Shown one piece after another: positions 25,685 to 40,544 of a stretch of DNA of 41,233 bases. Below the pieces are notes generated by a model. That model ran no database searches, was not told the DNA's origin, and worked only from the letters and a program-made list of their open reading frames with translations. The position numbers and the translations under genes were made by a program. Positions within the stretch are counted from its first letter, which is position 1. Each line of letters opens with the position of its first letter. This DNA comes from an uncultured Alphaproteobacteria bacterium (GTDB taxonomy: Bacteria; Pseudomonadota; Alphaproteobacteria; Rhodobacterales; Rhodobacteraceae), in NCBI GenBank assembly GCA_902611475.1, contig CACLZW010000013.1, positions 1-41,233 of the forward strand, written 5' to 3'.

Positions 25685-26473
25685 GTGAAAATTGCATTTA
25701 AAAATTCATACCCAAAATGTCCAAAGGGAATGTCAGTGAATGAGTGGAAAGCTAGAGTTGACTTAGCTGCCATCTATAGATTAACCGACTACTATGGTTG
25801 GACAAGCGTTGTGTATAACCATATAACCTTAAGAATTCCAGACACTGATACTTTTCTTATAAACCCCTTTGGCCTTAGATACGACGAAATTAATGCATCG
25901 AATTTAATTAAGATTGATTTAGATGGGAATAAGTTAGACCCTAATGATTGGCCCATAAATCAGGCTGGGTATAATATTCATTCTGCTATACATAAAGCAA
26001 GAAATAAAGACCTTCATTGTGTTATGCATACCCATGAACCAATGAGTCAAACAATTGCAGCGCTAAAAGAAAAGGTTATACCTATGTTTCAAGAGGCTTG
26101 CCAATTATATGAAAGGGTAGGCTATCATGATTTTGAGGGTATAGTTCTGGACGCCTCTGAGAAAAAAAGACTTATTAAATCTCTTGGTAAGTCTAATCAT
26201 ACATTAGTTTTAAGAAATCATGGCTTAATTACTGCTGGACCAAGCGCTATTTGGGCGTTTATTAGGCACCAAGTGTTTATTAGGAATGCCGAGATACAAC
26301 TAAGAGCAATGAGTTCGGGTGGTAAGATTATAAAAATTCCAAAAAAAATTATGGTTCATACTAGAAAACAGTTCGAAGGTGGAGCTGCTCAAGGTGGAGC
26401 CGAAGTGAGGCATCCTGAGTGGCCAGCTTATTGGAGATTGCTGGATAAGCTTGATCCAAATTGGAAAAAATAA
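25685..26473 (+). CDS. Class II aldolase/adducin family protein
   Basis: A 262-residue protein starting at GTG. Metal-binding histidines are visible at H115 and H117 (VMHTHEP) and H179 (LRNHGLITAG). The glutamate normally found in the SEWxxH segment of fuculose- and ribulose-phosphate aldolases is missing; the equivalent stretch reads NQAGYNIHSAIH. It is therefore closer to the adducin-like branch, for which aldol chemistry is not assured. It faces the HAD/RraA/SnoaL genes with only three bases between stop codons. By position it may belong to the same catabolic locus, but it lies on the far side and has its own upstream region. Confidence 0.85.
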   Translation: MKIAFKNSYPKCPKGMSVNEWKARVDLAAIYRLTDYYGWTSVVYNHITLRIPDTDTFLINPFGLRYDEINASNLIKIDLDGNKLDPNDWPINQAGYNIHSAIHKARNKDLHCVMHTHEPMSQTIAALKEKVIPMFQEACQLYERVGYHDFEGIVLDASEKKRLIKSLGKSNHTLVLRNHGLITAGPSAIWAFIRHQVFIRNAEIQLRAMSSGGKIIKIPKKIMVHTRKQFEGGAAQGGAEVRHPEWPAYWRLLDKLDPNWKK

Positions 26474-26476
26474 ATT

Positions 26477-27130
26477 CTAAATTTTAAATATTTCTTCCAT
26501 TAGATTGAAGCTCGGCTTTACTTCCTTCGTGTAGTTTGAATATTCTCCAGGATATAGAATACTGTTAATGTCTGCCGCTATTGATGCCCCGAGATTTACT
26601 TGAGTATCTTCTATCGCGATGGCCTCGCATGGACTAACCCCAATTTTTTTGAGCGCGTTTTGATAAATTTCGGGATTTGGTTTTGGATGTAAGCAGTCTT
26701 TAGACGTAGTAATTATATCAAAGTCATTAAAGTTTACTTTATCTTCAAGTGCTTTAGATAACGACTTTATATTTGTCTCTGAAGTAGTTGTTATTAAACC
26801 AACTTTTAAATCACTTGCTTTGCTATGGTGAAATACTTCAACAAACTCAATCCGTGATATATCTTCTTGCTCTATAAGTTCTGCGTAAATCTCTTCTTTA
26901 AGATTATGAATTTTATCAACCAAGTCTTCTGCTATGTTTGGTATTGTGAAATTTCTTATTCTATCTTTGCCGCCGGGGACTTTAAGCATTTCGCAATAGT
27001 TTGCTACGTTCCAGTAACAATCAATATTTAATCTTTTAAAAGCTAAATTGTAACTCCGTCTTTGTATCTCAGAGGTTTCAGCAATTGTTCCGATAGACCC
27101 AAATAAGACTGCTTTTAAGTTTTTATTCAC
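26477..27130 (-). CDS. HAD-superfamily protein lacking the nucleophile aspartate
   Basis: A 217-residue CbbY/beta-phosphoglucomutase-like fold. Motif I, normally FDxDGT, reads FGSIGT (residues 10-15): the nucleophile Asp is Gly11 and the second Asp is Ile13. Later motifs remain: LITTTSE (motif II), the lysine in LHPKPNPEIY (motif III) and the acidic IEDTQVN (motif IV). The fold is clear but ordinary phosphatase or mutase chemistry should be impossible. It may be a non-catalytic binder or use different chemistry. It is the last gene of the leftward SnoaL-RraA-HAD unit; GGAGGT precedes the ATG. Confidence 0.85.
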   Translation of the reverse strand: MNKNLKAVLFGSIGTIAETSEIQRRSYNLAFKRLNIDCYWNVANYCEMLKVPGGKDRIRNFTIPNIAEDLVDKIHNLKEEIYAELIEQEDISRIEFVEVFHHSKASDLKVGLITTTSETNIKSLSKALEDKVNFNDFDIITTSKDCLHPKPNPEIYQNALKKIGVSPCEAIAIEDTQVNLGASIAADINSILYPGEYSNYTKEVKPSFNLMEEIFKI

Positions 27131-27167
27131 TCCATACCTCCACTAAATTTTGTACCCCTTAACATTT

Positions 27168-27863
27168 TCATTTGATATCCCATGATGCCTGGAAAGCTTT
27201 TTTTAATTTCTCAATATTAAAATCTTTTTGTCTAGCCGCCTCCAAAATCGGAATCTCTTTCTTTACAACAAGGTCCAACGCATAAGGCAATGCATCCAAA
27301 TGCTTTTTTGGCACTGTCATAGCTCCATGCTGGTCAGCATGTATAAAGTCTCCAGGCTTTATTTCTAATCCTAATATATTTACAGGTGTGTCTAACTCAG
27401 TGATATGTACAAAGGCGTGACTAGGCCCTATGCTTCCCGCAATAACTTGATACCCAGAATCCAGCATCCCTAAATCTCTTAGCAGTCCATTAGTAACAGT
27501 GCCTTTAATTTTCAATCCCTTATGTACAGCAACATTAAGCTCACCCCAAAAAGCTCCAATACAGTTAGGAAAGTCTGTGTCTTCTATAACGACTACAGGG
27601 TTTTTTTCGTTTTTGACGATATACTCGTAATATTCCATACGGATATTGTTAATATCTTTTTGAGATTTGAGTGGGGGTGAAGAGGCCCGTATTTTAGCCG
27701 TTTTTGCAAAACCAACAATGGGCTGGGTAGAATTTTGCGCTGTAACCATCGAGCTTTTAGTAAACCCTATAGCGGATCTCGTGCCTAATATAACATCCAT
27801 AGCATTACACATTGTTGGCGTATCGTATTTAGAAGTTGTTTTAATAAGTTGATCAATATTCAT
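27168..27863 (-). CDS. RraA-family protein (HMG/oxaloacetate aldolase-like)
   Basis: A 231-residue cytoplasmic protein of the RraA/4-hydroxy-4-methyl-2-oxoglutarate aldolase family. The active-site Arg-Asp pair is in TNGLLRDLG, and GSIGPSHAFVHI and DFIHADQHGAMTVP match the family's conserved turns (usual form HADxDGVxxVP). Members either cleave 2-oxo-4-hydroxy diacids to pyruvate, or act as RNase E inhibitors. The catabolic setting beside ABC-transporter and dehydrogenase genes favours an aldolase or hydratase role. It lies between the HAD-like and double-SnoaL genes on the left arm of the LacI-type divergon. Confidence 0.87.
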   Translation of the reverse strand: MNIDQLIKTTSKYDTPTMCNAMDVILGTRSAIGFTKSSMVTAQNSTQPIVGFAKTAKIRASSPPLKSQKDINNIRMEYYEYIVKNEKNPVVVIEDTDFPNCIGAFWGELNVAVHKGLKIKGTVTNGLLRDLGMLDSGYQVIAGSIGPSHAFVHITELDTPVNILGLEIKPGDFIHADQHGAMTVPKKHLDALPYALDLVVKKEIPILEAARQKDFNIEKLKKAFQASWDIK

Positions 27864-27894
27864 TGTCTATTCTTTACCCAATTTTATGCTGCCA

Positions 27895-28893
27895 TCAAGG
27901 TGATATTTTCGTCGTCCTTTCCAATATGTCGATATCCTGCATCTTCCAAAAATGAAGAAGATCTATGAATATCCAGTTTTCCTTAAGCTTCTTTCCTTCT
28001 CTCCTGTAAATATCAATTACCCGCATATCACCTCTTTTCCCAGTGGATGGCATTCCCATAAATCCTCCTGAATGGACCAACGAAAGATTTGGCCAACCAA
28101 AGAACCCTCCAAAAAATCCTTCTGTTATCCTACAAATATGCCCATTAAACTGGCGTTCTTCAAAACTTTCTCTGAATGGTCCGGAGTGTTGTTCGGCATA
28201 TCTTTCGATTGTATACGTGGCTCCTATGCCTGATGGACCCCACCATAACATATCTTGGTGCCAGCTTTTTTTAAGCTCCTTTATTAATGAAACTCTATCA
28301 GTTGATTTCCAAACCTTTAGATCATCAATCATATCTTCAATAGCTTTTTTAGTTTTAATAGTTTCTGCCGCATCTTGATCGTCAAATAATAAACCATCAT
28401 GTGATGACGGACCGGGTTGAACAATATTAGCCCCTGTTTGATAATGGAAAGGGTATACCCCTGCTTGAGACATAAAGTGTGGAATGTCAAAAAACATTGC
28501 CGTTTCGACGATTTTATTTGAAACTATTTTGTTGAATTCTGCATATCGCAGAAAAGTCAGTTTTTTGTTTGGCGATATTTTTAGCCATGGTTTATCAAAT
28601 AGACCCATCAAGTGGCCCATTGAAACAACCCAAACGCCCTCGTGGCCAGGAATAGTATTAGCACCTGCAAAAAAAATATCCATTCTGCGTGTTAAGGAGG
28701 AAAGACTTTTTTTTAATGGTTCCCAAAAGAGTTTGTATACAGTTTCTGAGTTATAAATTTCATTGAAGGGATGAAATCCACGCCATATGAGATCGTCAGA
28801 AACATATTTCTTGAACACAGATTTTGTTTCTGGCTCTTTGTCTAAAGCGTCATAAAAATCGAGTAGCACCTGTTTCTCAGACTGGAAATTCAT
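27895..28893 (-). CDS. Double SnoaL-like (NTF2-fold) protein, paralogue A
   Basis: A 332-residue protein made of two SnoaL/polyketide-cyclase-like domains (about 1-150 and 185-332). The second half contains WWGPSGIGATYTIERY, FGWPNLSLVHSGGFMGMP and LKENWIFIDLLHFW. The same pattern occurs in the proteins at 33922-34977 (WYGPAGIGT..., [20 protein letters not shown]) and, more loosely, 36756-37721. NTF2-fold enzymes include aldol cyclases, isomerases and dehydratases; none of this tandem type is assigned by me. It is the first gene left of the operator. The 5' leader has no clear Shine-Dalgarno, only a T-rich run. Confidence 0.8.
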   Translation of the reverse strand: MNFQSEKQVLLDFYDALDKEPETKSVFKKYVSDDLIWRGFHPFNEIYNSETVYKLFWEPLKKSLSSLTRRMDIFFAGANTIPGHEGVWVVSMGHLMGLFDKPWLKISPNKKLTFLRYAEFNKIVSNKIVETAMFFDIPHFMSQAGVYPFHYQTGANIVQPGPSSHDGLLFDDQDAAETIKTKKAIEDMIDDLKVWKSTDRVSLIKELKKSWHQDMLWWGPSGIGATYTIERYAEQHSGPFRESFEERQFNGHICRITEGFFGGFFGWPNLSLVHSGGFMGMPSTGKRGDMRVIDIYRREGKKLKENWIFIDLLHFWKMQDIDILERTTKISP

Positions 28894-29178
28894 ATAGGAA
28901 AAAAAAGTTTTAAAAAATCTCTATTTAGATTATCATCAAAAAATACATTTGCAAGCGTATGCAATATTTATTCTATGGACAAAAATGATAATGTTTAAAT
29001 ATACAGAAAGCTCTATTAATGTATACCAGACTGAAGCTAATAAATTTCACCTAGATAATTTATTAAAATATACTAAATCTCAATATATTAAAATCCTTCA
29101 TACAGTTCACGGTTTTTATTACGTTTCCAATTCCATGAGCTCTCAAATATAGTGGGATTAAAATTTTAAGGAGAAAAA
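28894..29178. promoter_or_regulatory. Divergent control region of the catabolic locus
   Basis: At 285 bases this is the longest gene-free stretch in the window. It holds the LacI-type palindrome and AT-rich DNA on both sides. A 67-codon open frame across it (28949-29152) has no ribosome site, no family resemblance and overlaps the operator, so I do not call it a gene. AAGGAG just before 29179 is the ribosome site of the binding-protein gene. Confidence 0.6.
28949..28964. promoter_or_regulatory. LacI-family operator palindrome
   Basis: TTGCAAGCGTATGCAA is a 16-base imperfect palindrome with the central CG and TTGCA/TGCAA arms typical of LacI/GalR-family sites (12 of 16 positions symmetric). 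It lies in the divergent region between the leftward SnoaL-RraA-HAD unit and the rightward ABC-transporter operon. The only LacI-family gene in the window (35740-36753) is inside that rightward operon, so autoregulation and control of both arms are the natural inference. I saw no second copy near the other gene starts. Confidence 0.65.
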
Positions 29179-30393: not shown

Positions 30394-30399
30394 TATATC

Positions 30400-30430
30400 T
30401 TGGGGGCTCACAAGAGCCCCCAACTTTTCT
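30400..30430 (+). terminator. GC-rich hairpin between binding-protein and permease genes
   Basis: TTGGGGGCTC (30400-30409) pairs perfectly with GAGCCCCCAA (30414-30423) across an ACAA loop, followed by CTTTTCT up to the next ATG. It is strikingly GC-rich in this AT-rich window. Such hairpins between a binding protein and its permeases usually stop part of transcription or protect the upstream message, giving more binding protein than permease. Confidence 0.75.
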
Positions 30431-31456
30431 ATGAAAAATAGAGATTTTATATTTTTTGTTGGCCCATCATTAGTGGCAATGTTTGTTTGCATTGCGATCC
30501 CTTTGATATTTGTTCTAGAACAAAGCTTTTTTGTCAACAAAAAGGTATATAAAGAAGTAGAGGTTGAGTCTTGTGTTGCTGGTTTCACAGGCCAGATATG
30601 TAGCGTTGAGATGCAAACCAAACCACAACTAAATGAAAAGGGAGAAATTATCACTCAAAAAGAATTTGTAGGTCTAGAGAACTACGTGAGGCTCATTAAT
30701 TTCGATGCAGTGAAGAAAGCTTTTTGGCAACAAAATTTTTTAGAGTTAGAAAATGTAAAGTTTTTTAGCGCTTTGCGTTTCACGGTAACTTTTTGTTTAA
30801 TAACACTACCATTTGTAATTATTCTTGGGTTAGTTATTGCTTTAACGGTTAATAATTTATTATCATCTCTAAAAGGCCCAATCATTTTCGTTTCTCTTTT
30901 GCCTTTTATAATTACACCAATAATCGGTGCATTATCCATTAGGTGGTTATTCGTTGGTGATGGAATCATAACCGCATTCCTCGAATGGTTAACAAATTCG
31001 AATATTTCAATGTTTTCAAATTCTTGGACGCTTGAATTGATGATGATTTTATATCGTATTTGGCATGTGTGTCCCTTTGCCTTCATTGTATTTTACGCAG
31101 GCTTGCAGACAATTAATAAAGAGATGCTTGAAAGTGCGATAGTAGATGGAGCAAATAGGTATCAACGATTAAGATTTATAATAATCCCTCATTTAATGCC
31201 TCTCATAGTGTTTGTATCACTTATCCATTTGATGGATAGTTATCGAGTTTTTGAGGAGATTATTGCCTTTTCTTCCGATGCATATGTTATTTCGCTTCAA
31301 TGGCTTACTTATGATTTTCTTAGGCTTGATGATACAGGTAATAGGTATATAAGTAGTGCTTCGGCAAGTTCAATTTTAACAATGATTGGAATATCTATTT
31401 TACTTTATCCTCTAATTAAAAAAACTTGGAATGACTACAGGGAGGGTAAATTATGA
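30431..31456 (+). CDS. ABC transporter permease, MalF-like
   Basis: A 341-residue inner-membrane permease of the CUT1 sugar type. The first helix is at about 8-28. A periplasmic insert (about 30-90) before the second helix holds a close cysteine pair, SCVAGFTGQICS, which could form a disulfide. A helix bundle follows, and the EAA loop ESAIVDGANRYQRLRFIIIPHLMP contacts the ATPase. It starts seven bases after the hairpin stem, and its stop overlaps the second permease start (ATGA). The ATPase that should dock to the EAA loop is not encoded in the window. Confidence 0.9.
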   Translation: MKNRDFIFFVGPSLVAMFVCIAIPLIFVLEQSFFVNKKVYKEVEVESCVAGFTGQICSVEMQTKPQLNEKGEIITQKEFVGLENYVRLINFDAVKKAFWQQNFLELENVKFFSALRFTVTFCLITLPFVIILGLVIALTVNNLLSSLKGPIIFVSLLPFIITPIIGALSIRWLFVGDGIITAFLEWLTNSNISMFSNSWTLELMMILYRIWHVCPFAFIVFYAGLQTINKEMLESAIVDGANRYQRLRFIIIPHLMPLIVFVSLIHLMDSYRVFEEIIAFSSDAYVISLQWLTYDFLRLDDTGNRYISSASASSILTMIGISILLYPLIKKTWNDYREGKL

Positions 31457-32595
31457 GTTTTTTAGATGCGTCAAATCAGCCATTTGCCCTAAAGGCATTC
31501 TCAACACTTTTTATACTCGTATGGTGTGTGATTGCCTGCTTCCCTCTTCTCTGGATAACAATAATGAGTTTAAAATTGCCTTTAGATGCATTTGACTCGA
31601 ATTTTTTCAATGTTTTAGTAGGACCGGTTACTTTACAACTCAAAAATGGAGTTTCTGTAGCTAGCATTCTAGCTATCTCTCTGTTTTCTATGTATTTTTA
31701 TTCAAGACGTCAAAGGCTTCGGAATTATTTAAGAGCCTCAATCGGATATTCTGAAGATGTGACATTGTTTTTGTTCATATTTTTATTATACATATTTTGT
31801 TGTATTTCCATTTCAATAATATTCAGTAAATTTTTTGATGCTTATTTAGGATTGTTTGGAGCAAAAATTTTTGGTTTTACGTTGGATCACTATCATGCAG
31901 TCTGGACAGAAAGAGGTTTTTCACTATTTTTTAAAAACTCTTTAATTGTGACCTCTGGAGTAGTTATTATTTCTTTATCATTGGGCACTCTTGCTGGGTA
32001 TGGTCTTGCCAGAAAAGAAAGCTCAATTGCTTTTTGGATTCTGATTATTGCTCTAATATTTAGGGCTTTACCCCATTCGGTTCTAGTAGCGGGCTACTTA
32101 CCATTTTTTATGAAATCAAATGCAATTTTATCACCAATTTTTGGAGAGTTCGCACCTATATTATACGGACAACCCTTGGCAGTAATCTTGGTCTTAGTTG
32201 CTATTAATCAACCATTTACAATCTGGCTTATGCGCTCATTTTTTCAAAATATTCCAAAAGAGCTTGATGAAGCAGCAAGAATTGATGGATGTTCGCACTT
32301 TCAGGCCTTTCGAAAAATAATTATACCCGTCATGTGGCCCGGTGTTATAACAACCGGTTTATTTAGCTTCATGCTGGGTTATAACGACTATTTAGTATGT
32401 TCGCTATTATTAGATGGTCAAAACCAAACAATGGTGCCATCTATCACGGGGCTATTTAACAGAGATACTAGTACGACTGATGAAATAGTTGCAATTGCAG
32501 CGGCGGTTTCTATAACCGCGCCTTTGTTTTTTATTGTTTTGATTTTCCAAAAACAAATAGTTAGTGGGTTAACAGCTGGTGCTGTTAAGGGATAA
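31453..32595 (+). CDS. ABC transporter permease, MalG-like, with an extra membrane hairpin
   Basis: A 380-residue permease, about 100 residues longer than usual MalG-type proteins (near 280). After the first helix (about 12-35) there is an insertion (about 45-145) with two further hydrophobic segments, SVASILAISLFSMYFY and TLFLFIFLLYIFCCISISII, joined by a basic loop (SRRQRLRNYLR). The normal core then starts at DHYHAVWTERGFSLFFKNS. The EAA loop ELDEAARIDGCSHFQAFRKIIIPVMWPG is intact. It partners the MalF-like permease and binding protein. Confidence 0.9.
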   Translation: MSFLDASNQPFALKAFSTLFILVWCVIACFPLLWITIMSLKLPLDAFDSNFFNVLVGPVTLQLKNGVSVASILAISLFSMYFYSRRQRLRNYLRASIGYSEDVTLFLFIFLLYIFCCISISIIFSKFFDAYLGLFGAKIFGFTLDHYHAVWTERGFSLFFKNSLIVTSGVVIISLSLGTLAGYGLARKESSIAFWILIIALIFRALPHSVLVAGYLPFFMKSNAILSPIFGEFAPILYGQPLAVILVLVAINQPFTIWLMRSFFQNIPKELDEAARIDGCSHFQAFRKIIIPVMWPGVITTGLFSFMLGYNDYLVCSLLLDGQNQTMVPSITGLFNRDTSTTDEIVAIAAAVSITAPLFFIVLIFQKQIVSGLTAGAVKG

Positions 32596-32617
32596 TAATT
32601 TTTTTAAGGAGTAAATA

Positions 32618-33925
32618 ATGGTTGATTTTTTAAAGAGAAGTAAACCCGAGGGTGAAAAATGGGAGGAGGATGAAAAAGTAAGAAAGTCTGTTGAAGAAAT
32701 TTTAAATAATATCGAGAAAAGAGGTGACTCAGCAATTAGGGAATTATCAAGGAAATTTGACAACTTTTCTCCTGATTCTTTTCGTTTAAGTGAAGATGAA
32801 GTAAGAAAGTGCATGGAAAAAGTGGACCAAAGGGATCTTGATGACATTATCTTTGCGCAAAAGCAAATACGGCGATTTGCAGAGGCTCAATTAGGTAGTA
32901 TAAAAGATATAGAATTAGAGACTATGCCGGGAGTAATCCTAGGACATAGAAATATTCCAGTTCAGTCAGTGGGTTGTTATGTTCCGGGTGGTAAATTCCC
33001 AATGGTTGCATCTGCACATATGTCTGTTTTGACGGCATCGGTTGCTGGCGTGCCCAGAATAATTGCGTCGGCTCCACCCGTTAACGGAGAGCCTCATCCA
33101 GCTATTGTTGCCGCTATGAAATTAGGAGGCGCTCATGAAATATATGTATTGGGTGGTATTCAGGCTGTTGCAGCTATGGCAATAGGAACGGAAAGCATAA
33201 AGCCCGTTGATATGTTGGTTGGACCCGGAAATGCTTTTGTTGCTGAGGCGAAAAGACAACTATTTGGAAGAGTCGGAATAGACTTATTTGCTGGTCCAAC
33301 AGAAACAATGGTAATTGCTGATAATAGTGTTGACGCTGAAATGTGTGCAACGGATTTACTTGGTCAAGCGGAACATGGATATAATTCCCCCGCGTGTCTT
33401 ATAACAAACTCCAAAAAACTAGCAGAGGATACTATTAGCGAAATTGAAAGACTTTTAAAAATATTACCAACTTCCGAAACCGCGCGCGCTAGTTGGGATA
33501 ATTATGGAGATATAATCTTATGCTCAACACATGAAGAAATGTTGAAGGTTGCTAATGATATGGCTTATGAGCACGTGCAAATTATGACTGATCGAGATGA
33601 TTGGTATCTGAAAAACATGCATTCATATGGTGCTCTCTTTTTAGGACCAAGAACGAATGTAGCAAATGGAGATAAAGTAATCGGGACTAATCATACTTTG
33701 CCTACAAAAAAAGCAGGGAAGTATACAGGTGGACTTTGGGTAGGAAAATTCATCAAAACGCATAGCTATCAAAGAATCATCACAGATGAAGCTGCATCTT
33801 TTATAGGAGAGTATGGCTCCAGGCTTTGTATGTTAGAAGGCTTCGTTGGTCATGCAGAACAATGTAATGTGAGAGTAAGGCGGTATGGTGGAAAAAATGT
33901 GCCATATGGAGAAGCTGCTAAATGA
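32618..33925 (+). CDS. Histidinol-dehydrogenase-family dehydrogenase, HpsN-like (sulfopropanediol 3-dehydrogenase type)
   Basis: A 435-residue NAD-dependent enzyme of the HisD superfamily. Zinc-ligand equivalents Q250, H253 (GQAEHG), D352 (NGDKVIG) and H412 (GHAEQ) and catalytic equivalents E318/H319 (YEHVQ) and H359 (TNHTLPT) are kept. That supports a two-step alcohol-to-acid oxidation. Blocks such as [20 protein letters not shown] and [16 protein letters not shown] distinguish it from biosynthetic HisD and match the catabolic branch that includes HpsN, which oxidises 2,3-dihydroxypropanesulfonate to sulfolactate. No sulfolactate sulfite-lyase genes are here, so the substrate may be another primary alcohol. 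AAGGAG precedes the ATG; the next gene overlaps its stop by four bases. Confidence 0.87.
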
Positions 33926-34977
33926 TGTCTAATCAAAGATCGGCATTCTTAAAATCATTACTAGCACCATTATTTGAGGCGATGGGAGATTTTTCGCTTT
34001 CTCAAGTAAAACCTGAGTTGGAAAAAATATTTTCGCAAGATTGCCTCGTTCATATGTGTTTTCCATTTAATGACATGCAGGGTTCTGATGCATTTTATAC
34101 TAATTGCTTAGAAAAATTAAGCACAGCAGTTCCCGACCTCGAAAGAAGGAATTTAATTGTGCTAGCAGCAACAACAGAGCATGGTAATGAATGGGTTTCA
34201 ACGATGGGTAATTATGTCGGTACATTTCAAGAGCAGTTTTTAGATATTTTTCCTACCGGACACTTTATGCATATGCGATTTCATGAATTCTTCAAATTTG
34301 AAGATCGGAATATTACTGAAGTGCAAGCTATTTGGGATATACCGGAGCTTATGATGATATCTAATTCGTGGCCACTAGCCCCCCAATTAGGAAAATTTAT
34401 TTTAACGCCATCCCCAGAAACAAACGATGGTATTTTCGTGTCTGGAGATGGAGCAAAAAATGAACAGAAAATTAAAAACATGTTAACTGACTTATGCAGG
34501 CATCCAGAGAACCCTGATCCAAAGGTGATGAATTTAGATCTTCACTGGCACCCAAATTTTAATTGGTATGGTCCAGCAGGGATAGGAACATGTCGAGGCA
34601 TAGATGGCTTTAGAAACTGGCACCAAATCCCATTTTTAAGAGGTATGCCAAACAGAAAAGTTGACAAATCGTCCGATAAATTTTCGGATTGGGAAGCGCA
34701 TACACACTGGATTAGTGAGGGTGATTATGTTTCAGAAACTGGTTGGCCGAACATGATTATGAAATTAACCAATGATGGCTGGATGGGGATTCCGCCAGTA
34801 AACGAAGAAATTTTGTTAAGAAGTTTAGACTTTTGGCGTATTGGGAAAGATGGTCGTATAAAGGAAAATTGGGTTCTTGTAGACCTATTAGATATGTATA
34901 ACCAAATAGGAGTTAACGTATTCGATAGAATGAGAGAGTTCAATAAGGCAAAAATATCTAGATCGGGGGCAACCTAA
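33922..34977 (+). CDS. Double SnoaL-like (NTF2-fold) protein, paralogue B
   Basis: A 351-residue protein with two SnoaL-like domains (about 20-160 and 185-340). The second contains [47 protein letters not shown] and [18 protein letters not shown], closely parallel to paralogue A on the other arm. Many conserved His, Trp and Asp residues suggest an enzyme and not a simple binder. The ATG overlaps the dehydrogenase stop (ATGA), so translation is coupled and action on that enzyme's product or substrate is likely. Confidence 0.82.
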
Positions 34978-34978
34978 G

Positions 34979-35743
34979 ATGAACCTTCCTCAGACACCTA
35001 GCTTTTCGCTTGCTAATAAAAACGCATTAGTGGTAGGAGCTTCTTCTGGGATAGGTCTTGCTTGTGCCGTGGCACTTGCAGACTATGGTGCTAAGGTAAC
35101 TCTTGCTGCACGAAGAACAAAAAATATTAAAGAACTCGCAGAAAAATTGAATAAAAAAGGCTGTGATGCATCTATTTTGGATTTGGATATAAGTGATTTG
35201 GAAAATATTGAGGAAAATTTACTATCAAAAGGTCCTTATGATGTTTTGGTAAATTCAGCTGGAATAGCGAAACATTCTTTATCAAAAAATACAAACGTTA
35301 GCGATTTTGATGAAGTACTAAATGTTAATTTAAAGGGGGCTTTTTTCTTAACACGGACTGTAGCTAACCAATTACTTAAAGATAAGAAATCCGGCTCGCT
35401 TATAAATATTTCATCCCAGATGGGTATTGTAGGTGGTTTAGAGAGATCTGTTTATTGTGCATCAAAGCATGCGGTAGAAGGATTTACCAAAGCAATGGCA
35501 ATAGAATATGGACCATATGGAATTAGAATTAACACTATTTGCCCTACTTTTATTTTAACTGAGTTAACTCGTTCCACTTTTGAGGATGCAAAAAAAAGAA
35601 AATGGATAGAGGAAAAAATTAAACTAGGAAGAGTTGGGAAAGTTGAAGATATAATGGGTGCAGTTATTTACCTTGCGTCAGATGCCTCTTCATTAGTCAC
35701 TGGTTCTGCTTTGATGGTAGATGGAGGATGGACCGCTGAATGA
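34979..35743 (+). CDS. Short-chain dehydrogenase/reductase
   Basis: A 254-residue classical SDR. GASSGIG (residues 20-26) is the cofactor loop, NSAG near residue 92, S145/S146 and Y159/K163 (YCASK) the active site, and DGGWTAE the common C-terminal end. The dehydrogenase acts on a secondary alcohol or ketone, probably of the locus substrate. In dihydroxypropanesulfonate pathways, companion dehydrogenases (HpsO, HpsP) act beside HpsN, and this could be an analogue, but assignment is not possible. It starts one base after paralogue B and its TGA overlaps the LacI start. Confidence 0.9.
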   Translation: MNLPQTPSFSLANKNALVVGASSGIGLACAVALADYGAKVTLAARRTKNIKELAEKLNKKGCDASILDLDISDLENIEENLLSKGPYDVLVNSAGIAKHSLSKNTNVSDFDEVLNVNLKGAFFLTRTVANQLLKDKKSGSLINISSQMGIVGGLERSVYCASKHAVEGFTKAMAIEYGPYGIRINTICPTFILTELTRSTFEDAKKRKWIEEKIKLGRVGKVEDIMGAVIYLASDASSLVTGSALMVDGGWTAE

Positions 35744-36753
35744 AAATTAATAAGATAACTTCTGCACAAGTTGCAAAATTAGCTGGAGTTTCCCAATCGG
35801 CTGTAAGTAGAGTATTTACCCCCGGAGCATCTGTTTCTTTAAAAACCACCACAAAAGTAAAAGAAGCCGCTTTAAGCCTGGGATATAGACCCAACTCAAT
35901 TGCTAGAGCTATGGTATCCGGCAAAAGTCGTATGATCGGTGTAGTCGTAGCATACTTAGAAAACCAGTTCTATCCTGAGGCGCTAGAACGCCTCTCGAAT
36001 TGTCTCCAGGAAAAAGGATATCATGTGTTGATTTTTATGGCGGGTAAAGACATGCAAAGTATAGATAACGTAATCGAAGAAATTTTAGACTATCAAGTAG
36101 ATGGAATAATCGCTGCGTCAGTGTCAATGTCCTCTGGTTTATCCGAAAGATGCCGTAATGCTGGAGTCCCTATGGTTCTATTTAATAGAGCTCAAGACGA
36201 ACCAAATATGTCAGCCATCACCTCTGATAACATTGAAGGTGGCAAAAAAATTGCAAAATTCTTAATTAGTTCTGGTCATAAGAAGATTAGTTACATAGCA
36301 GGATGGGAAGGTGCCTCTACTCAAAGAGACCGTGAGGCTGGTTTTATCTCTATACTCAATGATGCTGGACTATCTTTACATAGTAGGAAAGTAGGTAATT
36401 TTGTACTTGAAGAGTCTAGAGAAGCTACAAGATCAATGTTCTTAAACAATCCTCCTGAGGCGGTATTTGTAGCTAACGATCATATGGCCTTCGCGGTTAT
36501 GGATACCCTCAGATATGAACTTGGACTAAAAATCCCTGACGATGTATCAGTTGTGGGTTACGACGACGTTCCGGCTGCATCTTGGCCCTCATATTTACTA
36601 ACAACTGTCCAACAGCCAGTAAATATCATGGTTAGAGAGACTGTAGAGATACTGATTGAAAAAATAGAAAATCCCGAGGCGAGACCTCAAAAAATTAAGG
36701 TTGATGGACCGCTTATTTTAAGAAAATCAGCCAAAATTCATAAAGGAAATTAA
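35740..36753 (+). CDS. LacI-family transcriptional regulator
   Basis: A 337-residue repressor. The helix-turn-helix is at about residues 8-28 (SAQVAKLAGVSQSAVSRVF), followed by the hinge helix region YRPNSIARAMVSGKS. The ligand domain is of the periplasmic-binding-protein type with IGVVVAYLENQFYPE, FNRAQDEPNMSAITSDN and VVGYDDVPAASWPSYLLTTVQQP. The ligand would be a sugar or a pathway intermediate. It is encoded inside the operon it probably controls, overlapping the SDR stop (ATGA). The 16-base palindrome at 28949-28964 is its best candidate site. Confidence 0.93.
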   Translation: MKINKITSAQVAKLAGVSQSAVSRVFTPGASVSLKTTTKVKEAALSLGYRPNSIARAMVSGKSRMIGVVVAYLENQFYPEALERLSNCLQEKGYHVLIFMAGKDMQSIDNVIEEILDYQVDGIIAASVSMSSGLSERCRNAGVPMVLFNRAQDEPNMSAITSDNIEGGKKIAKFLISSGHKKISYIAGWEGASTQRDREAGFISILNDAGLSLHSRKVGNFVLEESREATRSMFLNNPPEAVFVANDHMAFAVMDTLRYELGLKIPDDVSVVGYDDVPAASWPSYLLTTVQQPVNIMVRETVEILIEKIENPEARPQKIKVDGPLILRKSAKIHKGN

Positions 36754-36755
36754 TA

Positions 36756-37721
36756 ATGAAGGGCTTTGCAGAGAAATGGAAAGACTTACCAGAATATATA
36801 TTGGGAATTACTAAAGAAATTTGGGAAGATAGGGGTATTGATACATTAAATCATTATTACACTAAAGATATTCCCATGCGGTTTCCTGAAGGTATTTCTA
36901 TCGGCAATCAAAATACGATTAATGGAACCTTAGCAACTTTATCTGAATTTCCAGATAGACAATTAACCGGAGAAGATGTGATTTGGAGTGGAGATGATGA
37001 AACTGGTTTTTTATCTTCACACCGCTTATTAACGATGGGAACTCACCTGGGTAATGGCTATTTTGGTAAAGCAACTGGTAAGCGTTTTGTAATAAGAGCG
37101 ATTGCAGATTGTTCCGCTATAAATAATCAGATAAATGATGAATGGTTAATAAGAGACACTGCTGGGATTGTTAAACAATTAGGAATGGACCCCAAAAAAT
37201 TTGCAATAGACTTAATTGAAAGAGAGGGGGGTCCAGAAAATTGTATCAAGCCCTTTTCTCCATCGATAGATGTAGAGGGTCCTTACAGAGGCACTGGTAA
37301 TGATAATGAGTGGGGCCAGAAGTTAAGTGATATCCTTTCTGGAATTATGCAAAAAAACTACTCTATTATCCACAAAGAATACGATCGAGCTGTTCAAACC
37401 GAACACCCTGGAAGCACTACAGTGCATTCCTGGGCTGATACTGAATTTTTATGGATGGGGCTGAGATCGTCTTTTCCAAATGCAACATTTAAACTAGAGC
37501 ATGTTATTGGCAGGGAAGACCCTATGCTTTCGCCAAGAGCGGCTGTCCGTTGGAGTTTAAGTGGTAAACACGAAGGTTGGGGTATGTTCGACGAACCCAG
37601 TGGTGCGGAGGTATACATTATGGGTTTTACCCACGCCGAATTTGGTCCCTATGGATTAAGAAAGGAATTTACTCTTTTTGATCCAGTCTCAATTTGGAAA
37701 CAAATATATATGCAAAAATAA
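36756..37721 (+). CDS. Double SnoaL-like (NTF2-fold) protein, paralogue C
   Basis: A 321-residue protein with two NTF2-fold halves (about 10-150 and 195-315). It is the most divergent of the three. The first half has NHYYTKDIPMRFPEGISIGN and WSGDDETGFLSSHR, and the second has HKEYDRAVQTEHPG, WADTEFLWMGLRSSFPNATF and an ending REFTLFDPVSIWKQI. It lacks the WxGPxGIG block shared by A and B. The order of parts and length still fit the same family. It starts two bases after the LacI stop with AAAGGA upstream. Confidence 0.75.
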   Translation: MKGFAEKWKDLPEYILGITKEIWEDRGIDTLNHYYTKDIPMRFPEGISIGNQNTINGTLATLSEFPDRQLTGEDVIWSGDDETGFLSSHRLLTMGTHLGNGYFGKATGKRFVIRAIADCSAINNQINDEWLIRDTAGIVKQLGMDPKKFAIDLIEREGGPENCIKPFSPSIDVEGPYRGTGNDNEWGQKLSDILSGIMQKNYSIIHKEYDRAVQTEHPGSTTVHSWADTEFLWMGLRSSFPNATFKLEHVIGREDPMLSPRAAVRWSLSGKHEGWGMFDEPSGAEVYIMGFTHAEFGPYGLRKEFTLFDPVSIWKQIYMQK

Positions 37722-37751
37722 ATTTTATATTGGTAAAAAAAAGGAGAACTT

Positions 37752-38717
37752 ATGTCTCAGTTAGATATCGAAAGCAGAATTATACGTTATGGTGAACTTA
37801 TTCCTTGTAAAACAGCCTTTATTGACGCCCATACACCAGGATCTGACCAAAAGGAAAACTTTACTATTATAGGTGCGGGTGTTTCTGAGAGCCCAGATCA
37901 ACACGTCCATCTTGCTCTTCCTCATGGATTTAATATTGGGGCTGCCGGGCAACCACCAAAATGTAGGAATTCGCTCCATAGTCACAGAACTGCTGAGGTA
38001 TTTTTTGTATTGAAGGGAAGATGGCGCTTTTTTTGGGGTCGTTGGGGTACTGCGGGTGAGGTTGTTCTTCAAGAAGGAGACATTATTAATATTCCCACAG
38101 GGATTTTTAGGGGTTTTGAAAATATAGGGAATGACTATGGGATGATTATGGCAATTTTAGGGGGTGATGATGCCGGAGGAGGTGTCATTTGGGCTCCACA
38201 AGTTTTAGAGGACGCAAAAAATCATGGGCTCGTGTTGTCCGAAAAAGGTAAACTCTATGACACAAAAAAAGGTGAAAGCTTACCGGATAATATGAACCCA
38301 ATGCCTTCACTAACAGAGAAAGAGTTATCTGAATTTCCAGAGCTAAAAGGGGATGATATTATTGCCAATCATGTTGCAAGATATTTAGACCTTTTATCTT
38401 TATCTAAAGATAATCCTGCTAAAGTTATTGGTGAAAAAGCTAAACTGGTAGACAAGCCAGGATTTGAAGTTGAATTTATTTCTAGAAATTCACTTTCAAA
38501 CACCTCTCAAAAATCAAATAAAATAAATGTTTTGATGCCCGTTAAGGGTCATTGGAAGTTCTTTTCCAATACTTTTAAAACAGTTTTAAATCCTGGCGAC
38601 ACTTTTTCTGTGCCAGAAGATCTAGATTATACATTAGAACCATCAATGACCGGTGAAAGTGGTTTGTACAGGGTAATCCCTACAGACGATCCAGCTGGTG
38701 CAACATGGAGACCATAA
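37752..38717 (+). CDS. Bicupin protein
   Basis: A 321-residue cytoplasmic protein with two cupin barrels. The first (about 60-145) has RNSLHSHRTAEVFFVLKGRW and GDIINIPTGIFRGFEN, giving H77 and H79 as likely metal ligands with the downstream Glu. The second (about 235-320) has LMPVKGHWKFFSN and PGDTFSVPEDLDYTLEP and lacks the HxH metal set. Cupins in catabolic loci are often isomerases, dioxygenases or lyases; this one resembles gentisate-like or sugar-acid cupins only in general form. A strong AAGGAG ribosome site is seven bases from the ATG. Confidence 0.82.
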   Translation: MSQLDIESRIIRYGELIPCKTAFIDAHTPGSDQKENFTIIGAGVSESPDQHVHLALPHGFNIGAAGQPPKCRNSLHSHRTAEVFFVLKGRWRFFWGRWGTAGEVVLQEGDIINIPTGIFRGFENIGNDYGMIMAILGGDDAGGGVIWAPQVLEDAKNHGLVLSEKGKLYDTKKGESLPDNMNPMPSLTEKELSEFPELKGDDIIANHVARYLDLLSLSKDNPAKVIGEKAKLVDKPGFEVEFISRNSLSNTSQKSNKINVLMPVKGHWKFFSNTFKTVLNPGDTFSVPEDLDYTLEPSMTGESGLYRVIPTDDPAGATWRP

Positions 38718-38718
38718 A

Positions 38719-39840
38719 GTGAAAATACTAACAACACACGTAGGATCTCTTCCTAGATCTCAAAAAGTCGTAGATTTTATTTTTGCTAGAGAAAAAAATG
38801 AACCTTTTTCAATAGATGAATTCGATGACGTTATGAAGAAAGCAGTTGAAGCGACTGTAAAGAAACAGAAAGATTCCGGTATTGATATAGTCTCTGATGG
38901 AGAAACAAGTAAAATTTCCTATGCTACATATGTCAAAGATAGGTATACAGGGTTTGATGGCGATAGTCCAAGGAATGCACCTCAAGACTTGAAATTATTT
39001 CCACAATATTTAAAAAAGTTAGCCGATGACGGTGGAACCCCCCAGTACGCTCGTCCGATGTGTGTGGGTGAGGTAAAATCAAAAGAAAATAATGAACTCC
39101 AAAAAGACATAAAAAACCTAAAGTCGGCCATGAAAGTTAATAATGTTGAAAGAGGCTTTATGAACGCTGCTTCACCTGGAGTTATTTCTCTTTTTCTTCA
39201 AAATGATTACTATCCTAGTAGAGAAAAATACCTTGAGGCCTTAGCTGAGGCAATGAAACAAGAATATGATGCAATAGTTGCTGAAGGTCTCACGCTACAA
39301 CTTGATTGTCCTGATTTAGCATTGTCTCGACATATGCTATTTAATGATCTATCCGATGAAAATTTTATTAAAATTGCGAACCTCCATGTGGAAGCACTGA
39401 ATCATGCTTTAAGAGACATTCCTTCAGAAAAAATTAGAGTTCACATCTGTTGGGGAAACTATGAGGGTCCGCATGTTTGCGATATTTCAATGAAAAAAAT
39501 GTTTGATACACTTATGTCGTCAAAAGCACAGTACTTACTTTTTGAAACCTCCAATCCAAGGCATGCCCACGAATGGCAAATTTTTCAAGAGCGAAAGAAT
39601 GATATTCCGGACAACAAAATACTTGTACCTGGATGCTTAGATTCTACTACGAACTTTGTTGAGCATCCAATGCTTGTTGCGGAAAGGATAAATAAGTTCG
39701 TGAATATTGTAGGACACGACCGTGTAATTGGTGGCACGGATTGCGGTTTTGGTACATTTGCTGGATTTGGAGCTGTAGATCCAGACATCGCCTATGCAAA
39801 GCTGAAATCATTAGCAGAGGGTGCGTCACTAGTAAAATGA
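38719..39840 (+). CDS. Stand-alone MetE-type (cobalamin-independent methionine synthase II family) methyltransferase
   Basis: A 373-residue protein equal to the C-terminal catalytic half of MetE. Zinc ligands match: H242 and C244 (VHICWGN), E276 (LFETSN) and C342 (GTDCGFG). THVGSLPRS opens the barrel. It lacks MetE's N-terminal half, which helps bind polyglutamyl folate. Relatives transfer methyl groups from small methylated donors or corrinoid carriers, or have unknown thiol/methyl chemistry. I chose the GTG at 38719, two bases after the cupin stop, over an in-frame upstream GTG at 38698 because the barrel begins there. Inside this operon it suggests a methylated substrate. Confidence 0.87.
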   Translation: MKILTTHVGSLPRSQKVVDFIFAREKNEPFSIDEFDDVMKKAVEATVKKQKDSGIDIVSDGETSKISYATYVKDRYTGFDGDSPRNAPQDLKLFPQYLKKLADDGGTPQYARPMCVGEVKSKENNELQKDIKNLKSAMKVNNVERGFMNAASPGVISLFLQNDYYPSREKYLEALAEAMKQEYDAIVAEGLTLQLDCPDLALSRHMLFNDLSDENFIKIANLHVEALNHALRDIPSEKIRVHICWGNYEGPHVCDISMKKMFDTLMSSKAQYLLFETSNPRHAHEWQIFQERKNDIPDNKILVPGCLDSTTNFVEHPMLVAERINKFVNIVGHDRVIGGTDCGFGTFAGFGAVDPDIAYAKLKSLAEGASLVK

Positions 39841-40544
39841 AGCCATTTATCGTTCTTATACCAGGAATGATGTGCAATCATGATGTTTTTTCACACCAAA
39901 TTAATGCGTTAGAACCATTTTTTAATGTTAAAGTTAAAGAGTTCAATGAACATTGTGATATTGAGTCGGGTGTTAAAAATTTAGCTTCAAATTTACCGAG
40001 TAAATTTCATCTTCTTGGGCATTCCATGGGAGGCATTGTTGCTATGGAATTTGTCAAGCAACATAGGGAAAGAGTGCTCTCTTTAGTACTTCTAAACACT
40101 AACCCCTATGAAGAAAAACAGGAGATAAAGGACAGAAGAAATATAATACTTAACGAGTTGGATGCATTAGATTTAATTACGTTAATGAGGTCTGATTATA
40201 TATCTCGATACTTTCCTGATGACTGCAGAGATAAAAATATACTAATTCAAAAATGTGTTGATATGGCATCTACACTGGATAAAAAAGTTTTTTATAATCA
40301 GTCTGTTGCACTAAGAGACCGAAAGGATCAAACGGCTATTTTAGAAAACCTAAATTGCAAAACGCTACTTGTATGTGGTGAACGTGATAAAATGTGCCCA
40401 ATATCCTATCATTCTGATATGAATAAAATGATAAAAAGTTCTGATCTTATAGTTTTGGAGGGTATAGGTCACATGCCAACGCTCGAGTGCCCTCAAAAAT
40501 TAAATAATTATTTAAAAAACTTTTTCTTCAATAAAAATAAGTAA
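39837..40544 (+). CDS. Alpha/beta-fold hydrolase
   Basis: A 235-residue hydrolase. The nucleophile elbow GHSMGG gives S63; CGERDKMCP holds the acidic residue, and H in GIGHMPTLE completes the triad. There is no signal peptide. The ATG overlaps the methyltransferase TGA (ATGA), and the frame's upstream extension lies inside that gene, so it is not used. It probably opens an ester or lactone in the pathway. Confidence 0.88.
   Translation: MKPFIVLIPGMMCNHDVFSHQINALEPFFNVKVKEFNEHCDIESGVKNLASNLPSKFHLLGHSMGGIVAMEFVKQHRERVLSLVLLNTNPYEEKQEIKDRRNIILNELDALDLITLMRSDYISRYFPDDCRDKNILIQKCVDMASTLDKKVFYNQSVALRDRKDQTAILENLNCKTLLVCGERDKMCPISYHSDMNKMIKSSDLIVLEGIGHMPTLECPQKLNNYLKNFFFNKNK

What the first reader, a model, noticed from the sequence alone, without database searches (positions are those of the whole stretch)
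25685..40544. Undescribed LacI-controlled catabolic locus with HpsN-like, SnoaL, RraA, cupin and MetE-type enzymes
Fifteen genes form two arms plus a facing aldolase-like gene, around one LacI-type operator. The mix is unusual: CUT1 ABC uptake, an HpsN-like alcohol-to-acid dehydrogenase, an SDR, three double-SnoaL proteins, a bicupin, an RraA-type aldolase, a nucleophile-less HAD protein, a MetE-type methyltransferase and an alpha/beta hydrolase. The set looks like complete degradation of one sugar- or polyol-like compound, perhaps O- or S-methylated. Family roles are established; the pathway and substrate are inference.
Basis: partly seen in the sequence, partly recalled or inferred. Interest (0 to 1): 0.85.

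Follow-up and report, generated by a model that had tools for sequence, protein, structure and literature searches.

The report
Conserved marine operon, possibly sunscreen-eating
Many ocean bacteria carry the same undescribed set of uptake and breakdown genes, and the parts fit, though do not prove, a pathway for eating the natural sunscreens (mycosporines) made by algae, corals and fungi.

Summary
Fifteen ORFs sit at 25685-40544: a minus arm (SnoaL, RraA, HAD), an eleven-gene plus arm and a facing aldolase-II gene, around one LacI operator (28949-28964). Of the 80 best, 64 stretches are at least 20 kb long; 62 of these keep the dehydrogenase, 62 LacI, 60 the cupin, and 59 are collinear. The operator pattern recurs in 41 of 52 testable loci. 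The dehydrogenase is neither HisD nor HpsN: 83 of 83 carry [GA]GKFPM where HpsN has GRY(A/S)H, so DHPS is unlikely. A sister genome, about 98% identical on the left and 94% on the right, carries a different 7-kb front end.

My best reading: uptake and catabolism of mycosporine/gadusol-type compounds. SnoaL proteins strip amino groups, MetE removes the methyl, HDH oxidises CH2OH, cupin/hydrolase open the ring, RraA splits off pyruvate. A few variant loci add amidases, M19 dipeptidases, EutBC, a corrinoid methyltransferase, a CHA aldolase and an IolN-like hydrolase, which fit. Substrate and every chemical step are inference (about 0.4). My searches found no printed pathway.

The parts
25685..26473 (+). 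aldII, class II aldolase/adducin family (PRK07044 subfamily), faces the minus arm
   Evidence: NCBIfam 285.6 bits over cutoff 207; 98-100% identical at the same place in 3 of 3 sister genomes; not the best hit of any ORF in the 20 stretches, nor shown in the 80 loci
26477..27130 (-). HAD-fold protein lacking the catalytic DxD (GSIG)
   Evidence: Pfam HAD_2; GSIG in the window, L036 and L044/L113
27168..27863 (-). RraA-type class II pyruvate aldolase (proposed last step)
   Evidence: Pfam RraA-like; R129-D130 in at least 97% of 64 aligned sequences
27895..28893 (-). SnoaL_A, probable double SnoaL protein
   Evidence: Pfam SnoaL on the C-terminal half; homologue seen in 35 of 64 stretches, an undercount where the stretch ends
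28949..28964 (.). LacI-type operator TTGCAAGCGTATGCAA
   Evidence: 41 of 52 loci have the looser pattern there; only strict site in the held window genome
29179..30393 (+). CUT1-type solute-binding protein
   Evidence: Pfam SBP_bac_1
30431..31456 (+). ABC permease 1
   Evidence: Pfam BPD_transp_1, 27.4 against cutoff 26.4
31453..32595 (+). ABC permease 2
   Evidence: Pfam BPD_transp_1
32618..33925 (+). HDH, histidinol-dehydrogenase-fold alcohol-to-acid dehydrogenase, third subgroup
   Evidence: Nearest solved chain is HpsN, 372 bits; catalytic Glu/His/Asp and metal ligands kept, [GA]GKFPM in 83 of 83
33922..34977 (+). SnoaL_B, double SnoaL protein
   Evidence: Pfam SnoaL and SnoaL_2; 30 of 385 class genomes have a match, own genome included
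34979..35743 (+). SDR dehydrogenase
   Evidence: Pfam adh_short; Y159 and K163 in at least 97% of 76
35740..36753 (+). LacI-family regulator
   Evidence: Pfam LacI + Peripla_BP; in 62 of 64 stretches
36756..37721 (+). SnoaL_C, double SnoaL protein
   Evidence: Pfam; AlphaFold pLDDT 93.8, two NTF2-like domains
37752..38717 (+). Bicupin, possible ring-cleavage enzyme
38698..39840 (+). Core MetE-type zinc methyltransferase
   Evidence: HICWGN and DCGF in 72 of 72, Glu in at least 70 of 72
39837..40544 (+). Alpha/beta hydrolase
   Evidence: Pfam Abhydrolase; S64, D185 and H213 in at least 90% of 58; start corrected from 39741 by reading

Best explanation
A LacI-controlled operon, with an exchangeable uptake half, for taking up and degrading mycosporine- or gadusol-type compounds: small cyclohexenones or cyclohexenimines with a 2-methoxy group, a tertiary C5-OH, a C5-CH2OH and one or two amino-acid or amino-alcohol substituents. 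Proposed order; each chemical step is inferred. (1) The CUT1 permease imports the compound. (2) The double-SnoaL proteins hydrolyse the enaminone or imine bonds, freeing amino acids and leaving 4-deoxygadusol. (3) The MetE-type enzyme moves the enol methyl to a thiol. (4) HDH oxidises CH2OH to COOH; the SDR handles a secondary alcohol or ketone. (5) The bicupin and/or the alpha/beta hydrolase opens the ring between adjacent oxygenated carbons. (6) RraA, a class II pyruvate aldolase, splits the 4-hydroxy-2-oxo acid. By carbon count, 4-deoxygadusol oxidised at C7 and cleaved at C1-C2 is 4-carboxy-4-hydroxy-2-oxoadipate (CHA), which CHA aldolases split into pyruvate and oxaloacetate (recalled). 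Shown here: families, conserved catalytic residues, gene order, operator, cassette exchange.
For: Conserved set, order and operator. HDH keeps its catalytic residues but not the HpsN or HisD specificity motif. The aldolase is RraA in 49 of 64 stretches and HpcH/HpaI in Deinococcus and Ensifer (Pfam) and, by annotation, Priestia and Novosphingobium. Both families include class II pyruvate aldolases (recalled). The Desulfosarcinaceae locus (L078, G390:C91) has, among SnoaL and CUT1 genes: an RraA over the CHA-aldolase cutoff (PRK09262, 212.7 vs 179; but 195.5 vs 304.5 for TIGR02798), a creatininase-family protein nearest to the diketo-inositol hydrolase IolN (154 vs 245, below cutoff), a URO-D/corrinoid fusion methyltransferase, EutB and EutC, and two M19 dipeptidases; no HDH, cupin or MetE match in the 50 kb examined. 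Ensifer NER9, whose listed genes include no HDH (the plasmid gene table is incomplete), has OtnK (456 vs 350) and an OtnC-like protein (240.8 vs 250); gadusol cleaved the same way would give pyruvate plus 3-oxotetronate, OtnK's substrate. Amidase and two HDH genes are listed in Novosphingobium and Labrenzia (the second Labrenzia HDH sits in an adjacent TRAP set and may be separate), and a CN-hydrolase and two HDH genes in two Deinococcus records; fungal mycosporines carry glutaminol, glutamicol or glutamine (PMC4665425, passages). Marine MAAs carry glycine plus a second amino acid or an amino alcohol (PMC3083659, passages). Vibrio pelagius has CUT1 plus four SnoaL genes only; Dunlap and Shick, as cited in PMC3083659, suggested that Vibrio harveyi hydrolyses amino acids off shinorine and porphyra-334. 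PhzA/B, an NTF2-fold family that joins aminocyclohexenones (function recalled), is among many fold matches, from rank 32.
Against: No gene here is tied to a mycosporine by experiment or by adjacency to a biosynthetic gene. CUT1 plus LacI is the classic set-up for sugars. The cupin's fourth metal ligand is Arg in at least 97% of 84, so dioxygenase activity is doubtful, and its structural matches include seed storage proteins. MetE-type enzymes are not known (to my recall) to use enol ethers. MetE is not seen in 12 of 64 stretches and RraA not in 15, though in L054 and L055 RraA is only cut by the stretch's edge; all mycosporines are methoxylated (recalled). The accessory-gene argument is post hoc and rests on few hand-picked loci: one operon with M19 (L095) and one with GH1 (L056) seen among the 80, one MAG for the anaerobe. 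That MAG's locus also has fucose-isomerase-like, epimerase and gluconolactonase-like genes, which fit a sugar or cyclitol better, and a PfkB sugar-kinase-family gene follows MetE in G346. The number of SnoaL genes does not track marine versus land cleanly (Deinococcus 3 or 4; the marine Labrenzia plasmid 1). The top fold match of SnoaL_C is a polyether epoxide hydrolase complex, not an imine enzyme. The window's aldII and HAD have no place in the scheme.
Confidence: 0.4

Rival explanations
1. One reading: a sugar, polyol or O-methyl sugar is imported and degraded oxidatively; SnoaL proteins act as dehydratases or isomerases on keto-sugars, and the hydrolase or Amidohydro_2 as lactonase.
For: CUT1 and LacI are sugar-type; SDR scores best against gluconate/KduD-type dehydrogenases, though below cutoffs; an Amidohydro_2 gene beside SnoaL_A in several loci; GH1 inside the L056 operon; PfkB after MetE in G346; glucokinase next door.
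Against: I saw no sugar kinase, isomerase or glycosidase recurring inside the operons (one search's output was cut); amidase, CN-hydrolase, M19 and EutBC in variant loci suggest an amine or amide; glucokinase goes with a neighbouring glucoside cluster in sister genomes.
Confidence: 0.25
2. An O-methyl cyclitol or aminocyclitol other than a mycosporine (pinitol-like or valienamine-like) is degraded by ring dehydrogenation, IolN-like hydrolysis and aldol cleavage.
For: IolN-like creatininase, CHA aldolase and URO-D/corrinoid methyltransferase in the Desulfosarcinaceae locus.
Against: Inositol ethers have no CH2OH for HDH and no amine for the accessory genes; aminocyclitols are not known to me as abundant marine compounds.
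Confidence: 0.12
3. An unknown amino-acid-conjugated marine metabolite of another class is degraded; the general logic (C-N removal, demethylation, CH2OH oxidation, ring or chain opening, pyruvate aldolase) is right but the compound is not a mycosporine.
For: The same enzyme set; nothing pins the compound.
Against: Two carbon counts (CHA; 3-oxotetronate with OtnK) come out exactly for the mycosporine/gadusol ring (families; the carbon counts are inference).
Confidence: 0.2
4. A DHPS or other sulfonate pathway, because the dehydrogenase resembles HpsN.
For: HpsN chains are the best solved relatives, 372 bits against 265 or less for HisD chains; on the Labrenzia plasmid a TRAP-HDH-SDR-LacI set lies beside a SnoaL/CUT1 set.
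Against: His126, which binds the sulfonate in HpsN, is Met, and the motif GRY(A/S)H is [GA]GKFPM in 83 of 83; transport in the set is CUT1. Sulfite-releasing enzymes were not searched for.
Confidence: 0.02

Closest known systems
HpsN, R-DHPS 3-dehydrogenase (PDB 8v35-8v37, 9cp7-9cp9)
   Same: Fold, catalytic Glu/His/Asp, Gln and His metal ligands, expected four-electron alcohol-to-acid oxidation
   Different: No sulfonate-recognising His126; [GA]GKFPM instead of GRY(A/S)H; linked to SnoaL, cupin and CUT1 genes
CUT1/LacI carbohydrate utilisation operons
   Same: Solute-binding protein, two permeases, MalK-type ATPase in 46 of 64 stretches, LacI with a palindromic operator
   Different: No sugar enzymes seen to recur in the set; 3-5 SnoaL proteins; the transporter type is exchanged between relatives while regulator and core enzymes stay
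CHA/HMG aldolase (LigK-type) and HpcH/HpaI aldolases
   Same: RraA fold with the Arg-Asp pair; HpcH takes its place in other lineages
   Different: The window's RraA scores only weakly against named RraA families; activity untested
Core MetE methyltransferases and epoxyalkane:CoM transferase (latter recalled)
   Same: H-x-C ... E ... C zinc site kept
   Different: Single-domain, clustered with SnoaL/cupin genes; scores far below the methionine-synthase cutoffs
SnoaL/NTF2-fold enzymes (MonBI-MonBII, IdmH, AclR, ketosteroid isomerase, limonene epoxide hydrolase, PhzA/B)
   Same: Fold of each half
   Different: Two domains in one chain; several paralogues in one catabolic operon

Membership tests
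HpsN (DHPS 3-dehydrogenase) | G-R-Y-A/S-H motif with sulfonate-binding His126 | tested here: not met
   Motif from PMC11382572 (passages); alignment; [GA]GKFPM in 83 of 83 aligned HDHs
HpsN (DHPS 3-dehydrogenase) | Catalytic Glu318, His319, Asp352 and metal ligands Gln248, His251, His411 | tested here: met
   EHVQ, GDK and GQAEHG in 83 of 83, the C-terminal His too, with single odd neighbours
Histidinol dehydrogenase (HisD) | G-S-A-P-L motif | tested here: not met
   but it passes the TIGR00069 cutoff, 435.8 vs 243.8
CUT1 ABC importer | Solute-binding protein plus two permeases | tested here: met
CUT1 ABC importer | MalK-type ATPase in the locus | tested here: not met
   None among the locus's ORFs; present at this place in L054/L055; in sister genome G385 a 47%-identical ATPase lies downstream on the same contig; the window contig ends before that point
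LacI-family local regulator | HTH plus ligand domain with a palindromic operator at its own operon | tested here: met
   binding not testable here
HAD phosphatase | DxD nucleophile motif | tested here: not met
   GSIG in three lineages, the window included
RraA-type class II pyruvate aldolase | Conserved Arg-Asp pair (recalled motif) | tested here: met
   R129-D130 in at least 97% of 64 sequences; activity not tested
Cupin dioxygenase | Three His and one Glu metal site in the N-terminal cupin (recalled) | tested here: not met
   H76, H78, E82 kept; Arg120 at the fourth ligand in at least 97% of 84
MetE-type methyltransferase | Zinc ligands H-x-C, E, C (recalled) | tested here: met
   HICWGN and DCGF in 72 of 72; Glu in at least 70 of 72
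Mycosporine catabolic operon (hypothetical) | Turnover of a mycosporine by its SnoaL proteins | not testable with these tools
   Needs enzyme assays

The most novel reading that the evidence does not exclude
This is the first gene set for bacterial breakdown of mycosporines, the UV sunscreens of algae, corals and fungi. Double SnoaL (NTF2-fold) proteins are a new class of enaminone/imine hydrolases; a MetE-type enzyme is a demethylase for an enol methyl ether; and the pathway converges on 4-carboxy-4-hydroxy-2-oxoadipate. The front end (transporter, HDH, SnoaL_B, SDR) is exchanged as a cassette so that strains follow different side chains.
Probability: 0.35. Interest if true: 0.92.

Novelty: new variant of a known kind. 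Interest (0 to 1): 0.76.

Why it matters
Hundreds of loci, in uncultured marine Alphaproteobacteria, Roseobacter-group isolates and Oceanospirillaceae, with looser versions in some soil bacteria, carry one conserved catabolic gene set that I could not find described. Finding its substrate would explain a flux that many marine bacteria invest in. If it is mycosporines, the fate of a widespread class of sunscreens becomes a gene-level question that can be followed in metagenomes and tested in culturable carriers (Ruegeria, Leisingera, Roseibium). It would also name new enzyme activities. Even if the substrate is something else, the locus shows a third subgroup of the HisD/HpsN family with its own motif, which annotation labels hisD.

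Tried and rejected
DHPS/sulfonate: rejected on the HpsN motif.

Glucokinase and GH1 as parts: rejected, because in sister genomes they go with a neighbouring glucoside CUT1 cluster.

A wider LacI regulon: only one strict operator site in the held window genome, so no further substrate clue. Of 13 genomes searched, 8 have the strict site at the locus, 5 do not (G310, G109, G213, G161, G193; the first two have one elsewhere). Of the 11 sites away from the loci, 5 read TTGCAACCGGTTGCAA; I did not follow them.

Solved-structure search with SnoaL_C gave only generic SnoaL-type proteins; fold comparison of the bicupin does not single out a reaction.

Paper searches for a printed pathway gave none: SnoaL/HisD/LacI terms and mycosporine-degradation terms, seen as listings only. 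The library holds open-licence PMC papers, so absence there is weak evidence.

I could not test Vibrio harveyi itself: the genus search needs a genome handle.

Not followed: a class I SAM methyltransferase inside four Ruegeria operons; kynureninase- and arginase-family genes after MetE in G310; a PfkB gene after MetE in G346; sulfatases near G022 and G161.

Transporter-type labels were first set by SBP score, then corrected with permease scores, because L104's SBP is a fragment. Tree and counts used 60 of 80 loci (those with LacI, SnoaL_C, cupin and SBP above thresholds). The HDH motif was not checked in the Deinococcus, Priestia, Sinorhizobium, Novosphingobium or Labrenzia copies. The 83 HDH sequences were not deduplicated (L111 and L114 look alike; L053 is a near-copy of the window).


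Full report
WHAT IS THERE. The window is a whole contig (G000:C13, 41233 bp) of a 1.59-Mb, 62%-complete assembly. The plus arm is tightly packed: permease 2, SnoaL_B, LacI, MetE and (with its corrected start) the hydrolase each begin inside the preceding ORF. Between SnoaL_A and the solute-binding gene sits TTGCAAGCGTATGCAA (28949-28964). The contig ends inside a glucokinase ORF just downstream.

CONSERVATION. With SnoaL_B as query, 30 of 385 genomes of the class have a match, the window's own included and two of them weak and short. Of these 80 stretches, 64 are at least 20 kb long, and I counted genes in all 64: HDH 62, LacI 62, perm1 60, cupin 60, SBP 59, perm2 59, SnoaL_B 56, SDR 55, MetE 52, small SnoaL 50, RraA 49, ATPase 46, ABH 43, SnoaL_A 35. 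The outer genes are undercounted where a stretch ends; for example RraA is cut at the edge in L054 and L055. 59 of 64 are collinear in HDH-SnoaL_B-SDR-LacI-SnoaL_C-cupin-MetE-ABH-RraA order with at least five of these genes. The set was chosen by SnoaL_C similarity, so these are its nearer relatives. Record titles include Ruegeria, Leisingera, Roseibium, Sulfitobacter, Planktomarina, HTCC2150, HTCC2255, Oceanospirillaceae and marine Alphaproteobacteria isolates AG-899-B02, AG-904-M20 and AG-426-E23. Plasmid records add Ruegeria conchae, Phaeobacter inhibens, Vibrio pelagius and others; the Phaeobacter inhibens copy looks like a remnant, with only an ATPase and one SnoaL listed in an incomplete gene table.

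REGULATION. TGCANNCGNNTGCA lies at -400 to +120 of the first transporter gene in 41 of 52 loci that have that region, against 78 matches in 1.54 Mb of all these loci. The stricter TTGCANNCGNNTGCAA occurs once in the held window genome, with 0 for the reversed control; over 13 genomes it is at the locus in 8 and not in 5. This suggests a local repressor with one target, as far as the incomplete genome shows.

CASSETTE EXCHANGE. In sister genomes (L053/L149; L054/L150; L055/L151) the flanks are close, but the middle differs. L053 carries the window's version (95.8-100% protein identity from SBP to SDR). L054 and L055 carry an ATPase plus SBP 42%, permeases 38-39 and 53%, HDH 80-81%, SnoaL_B 60-61% and SDR 66%. 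Around it, MiaA to RraA are 88-100% (aldII, HAD and RraA 98-100%), SnoaL_A 87%, and LacI to MetE 96-98%. Against L055/L151 the drop starts at about 28.6 kb and ends at about 35.75 kb; 250-base bins are mostly 96-99% to the left and about 92-98% to the right; L150 is 94.1% on the left. Over 60 of the 80 loci plus the window, the two transporter types need 12 changes on a LacI+SnoaL_C+cupin tree, at least 9 forced by well-supported branches; label shuffles average about 18, so the label is also partly clustered. The window's version has no ATPase of its own; in sister G385 a 47%-identical ATPase lies downstream on the same contig. An exchangeable uptake and first-enzyme half with a constant regulator and core half is what one expects if relatives share a core compound with different decorations (inference).

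ENZYMES. HDH: nearest solved relative HpsN (372 bits; HisD chains 265 or less). HpsN's diagnostic motif is GRY(A/S)H, HisD's GSAPL (PMC11382572, passages). Here 74 of 83 read GGKFPM and 9 AGKFPM, with catalytic Glu-His-Asp and metal ligands kept. It is a third subgroup. MetE: HICWGN and DCGF in 72 of 72. RraA: Arg-Asp pair in at least 97% of 64. ABH: GxSMGG in 58 of 58, Asp and His in at least 90%. SnoaL_C: two NTF2-like domains; top Foldseek match the polyether epoxide hydrolase MonBI-MonBII, PhzA/B from rank 32. Cupin: HxH and Glu kept but Arg120 at the fourth ligand; quercetin, gentisate and salicylate dioxygenases tie with oxalate decarboxylase and seed proteins. HAD: GSIG for DxD in three lineages.

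VARIANTS THAT SPEAK TO THE SUBSTRATE (plasmid gene tables are incomplete). Vibrio pelagius: CUT1 plus four ester cyclases only, next to sarcosine oxidase genes. Deinococcus (2 records): 3 or 4 SnoaL, two HDH, SDR, LacI, HpcH-type aldolase, hydrolase, cupin, CN-hydrolase. Priestia: one SnoaL, HDH, SDR, LacI, cupin, hydrolase, HpcH-type, amidase. Sinorhizobium: one SnoaL, CUT1, SDR, LacI, cupin, RraA, amidase, hydrolase. Novosphingobium: one SnoaL, two HDH, SDR, HpcH-type, amidase, cupin, hydrolase. Labrenzia plasmid: one SnoaL, CUT1, amidase, HDH, and beside it a TRAP-HDH-SDR-LacI set. Ensifer NER9: SnoaL_C, HpcH, hydrolase, OtnK, OtnC-like, cupin, CUT1. Desulfosarcinaceae MAG (L078, G390:C91): SnoaL proteins, two CUT1 sets, EutB and EutC, URO-D/corrinoid fusion, AOR, RraA over one CHA-aldolase cutoff (PRK09262) and under another (TIGR02798), IolN-like creatininase below cutoff, two M19 dipeptidases, and also fucose-isomerase-like, epimerase, Ldh_2 and gluconolactonase-like genes; no cupin, HDH or MetE match in 50 kb. 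In Sulfitobacter M05 an M19 gene stands where MetE usually is, and in Primorskyibacter a GH1 gene lies before MetE. These were picked by looking at odd loci, not by a blind count.

WHY MYCOSPORINES. A mycosporine needs these steps: removal of one or two amino-acid or amino-alcohol groups, removal of a methoxy methyl, oxidation of a CH2OH beside a tertiary OH, opening of a 1,3-dioxygenated six-ring, and cleavage of a 4-hydroxy-2-oxo acid. By carbon count the ring cleaved at C1-C2 after C7 oxidation is CHA; for gadusol without C7 oxidation, aldol cleavage gives pyruvate plus 3-oxotetronate, which fits OtnK in Ensifer. Marine forms carry glycine plus a second amino acid or amino alcohol, and sulfate esters exist (PMC3083659, passages); fungal forms carry one serinol, glutamicol, glutamine or glutaminol and may be glucosylated (PMC4665425, passages). 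That parallels one SnoaL plus amidase in three land-type loci and several SnoaL genes in marine loci, but Deinococcus (3 or 4) and the marine Labrenzia plasmid (one) do not fit. Vibrio harveyi was suggested to hydrolyse shinorine and porphyra-334 (PMC3083659 citing Dunlap and Shick 1998); I could not check that species for the genes. The chemistry of each step is inference; the ring structure and numbering are partly recalled.

WHAT SPEAKS AGAINST. No direct link to any mycosporine; sugar-type transporter and regulator; an atypical cupin metal site; MetE not seen in 12 and RraA in 15 of 64 stretches; accessory evidence from few, hand-picked loci, one of them a MAG; sugar-like genes in that MAG's locus and a PfkB gene in G346; aldII and HAD unexplained.

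NOVELTY. Nine of my ten paper searches looked for a description of such a locus or for mycosporine catabolic genes; their listings showed none. The library is limited to open-licence papers. The locus is built from known families, so I call it a new variant of a known kind, with a new HDH subgroup.

Noticed in passing
G000:C1:11035-11927 (L033 9973-10952): A second SnoaL_A-like copy in the window's genome is split over two overlapping frames, so it looks broken or mis-sequenced.
   Followed up: no
window 28.6-35.75 kb versus L054/L055: Sharp cassette exchange of transporter, HDH, SnoaL_B and SDR between closely related genomes.
   Followed up: yes
window 26477-27130; L036 16901-17557; L044 6363-7040: A HAD protein whose missing nucleophile (GSIG for DxD) is shared by three lineages beside this kind of locus, suggesting a non-phosphatase role.
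   Followed up: partly
window 40577-41233 and L053/L055 downstream: Glucokinase, then a GH1-like ORF and another CUT1 set: a neighbouring glucoside locus whose ATPase may also serve this transporter.
   Followed up: partly
L116, L119, L120, L131: A class I SAM methyltransferase sits between cupin and MetE in four Ruegeria operons (Pfam checked on L116 only).
   Followed up: partly
L035 3959-6153 (G310): A kynureninase-like and an arginase-family gene follow MetE directly.
   Followed up: partly
L052 4607-5536 (G346): A PfkB sugar-kinase-family gene follows MetE.
   Followed up: partly
L036 8100-9632; L038 7967-9502: Sulfatase genes lie near two of the loci; mycosporine sulfate esters exist, but the link is untested.
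   Followed up: partly
L134 (Phaeobacter inhibens plasmid pDOK1-1-2): An apparent remnant of the operon near transposases, beside another gene set (inositol oxygenase family, PanB family).
   Followed up: no
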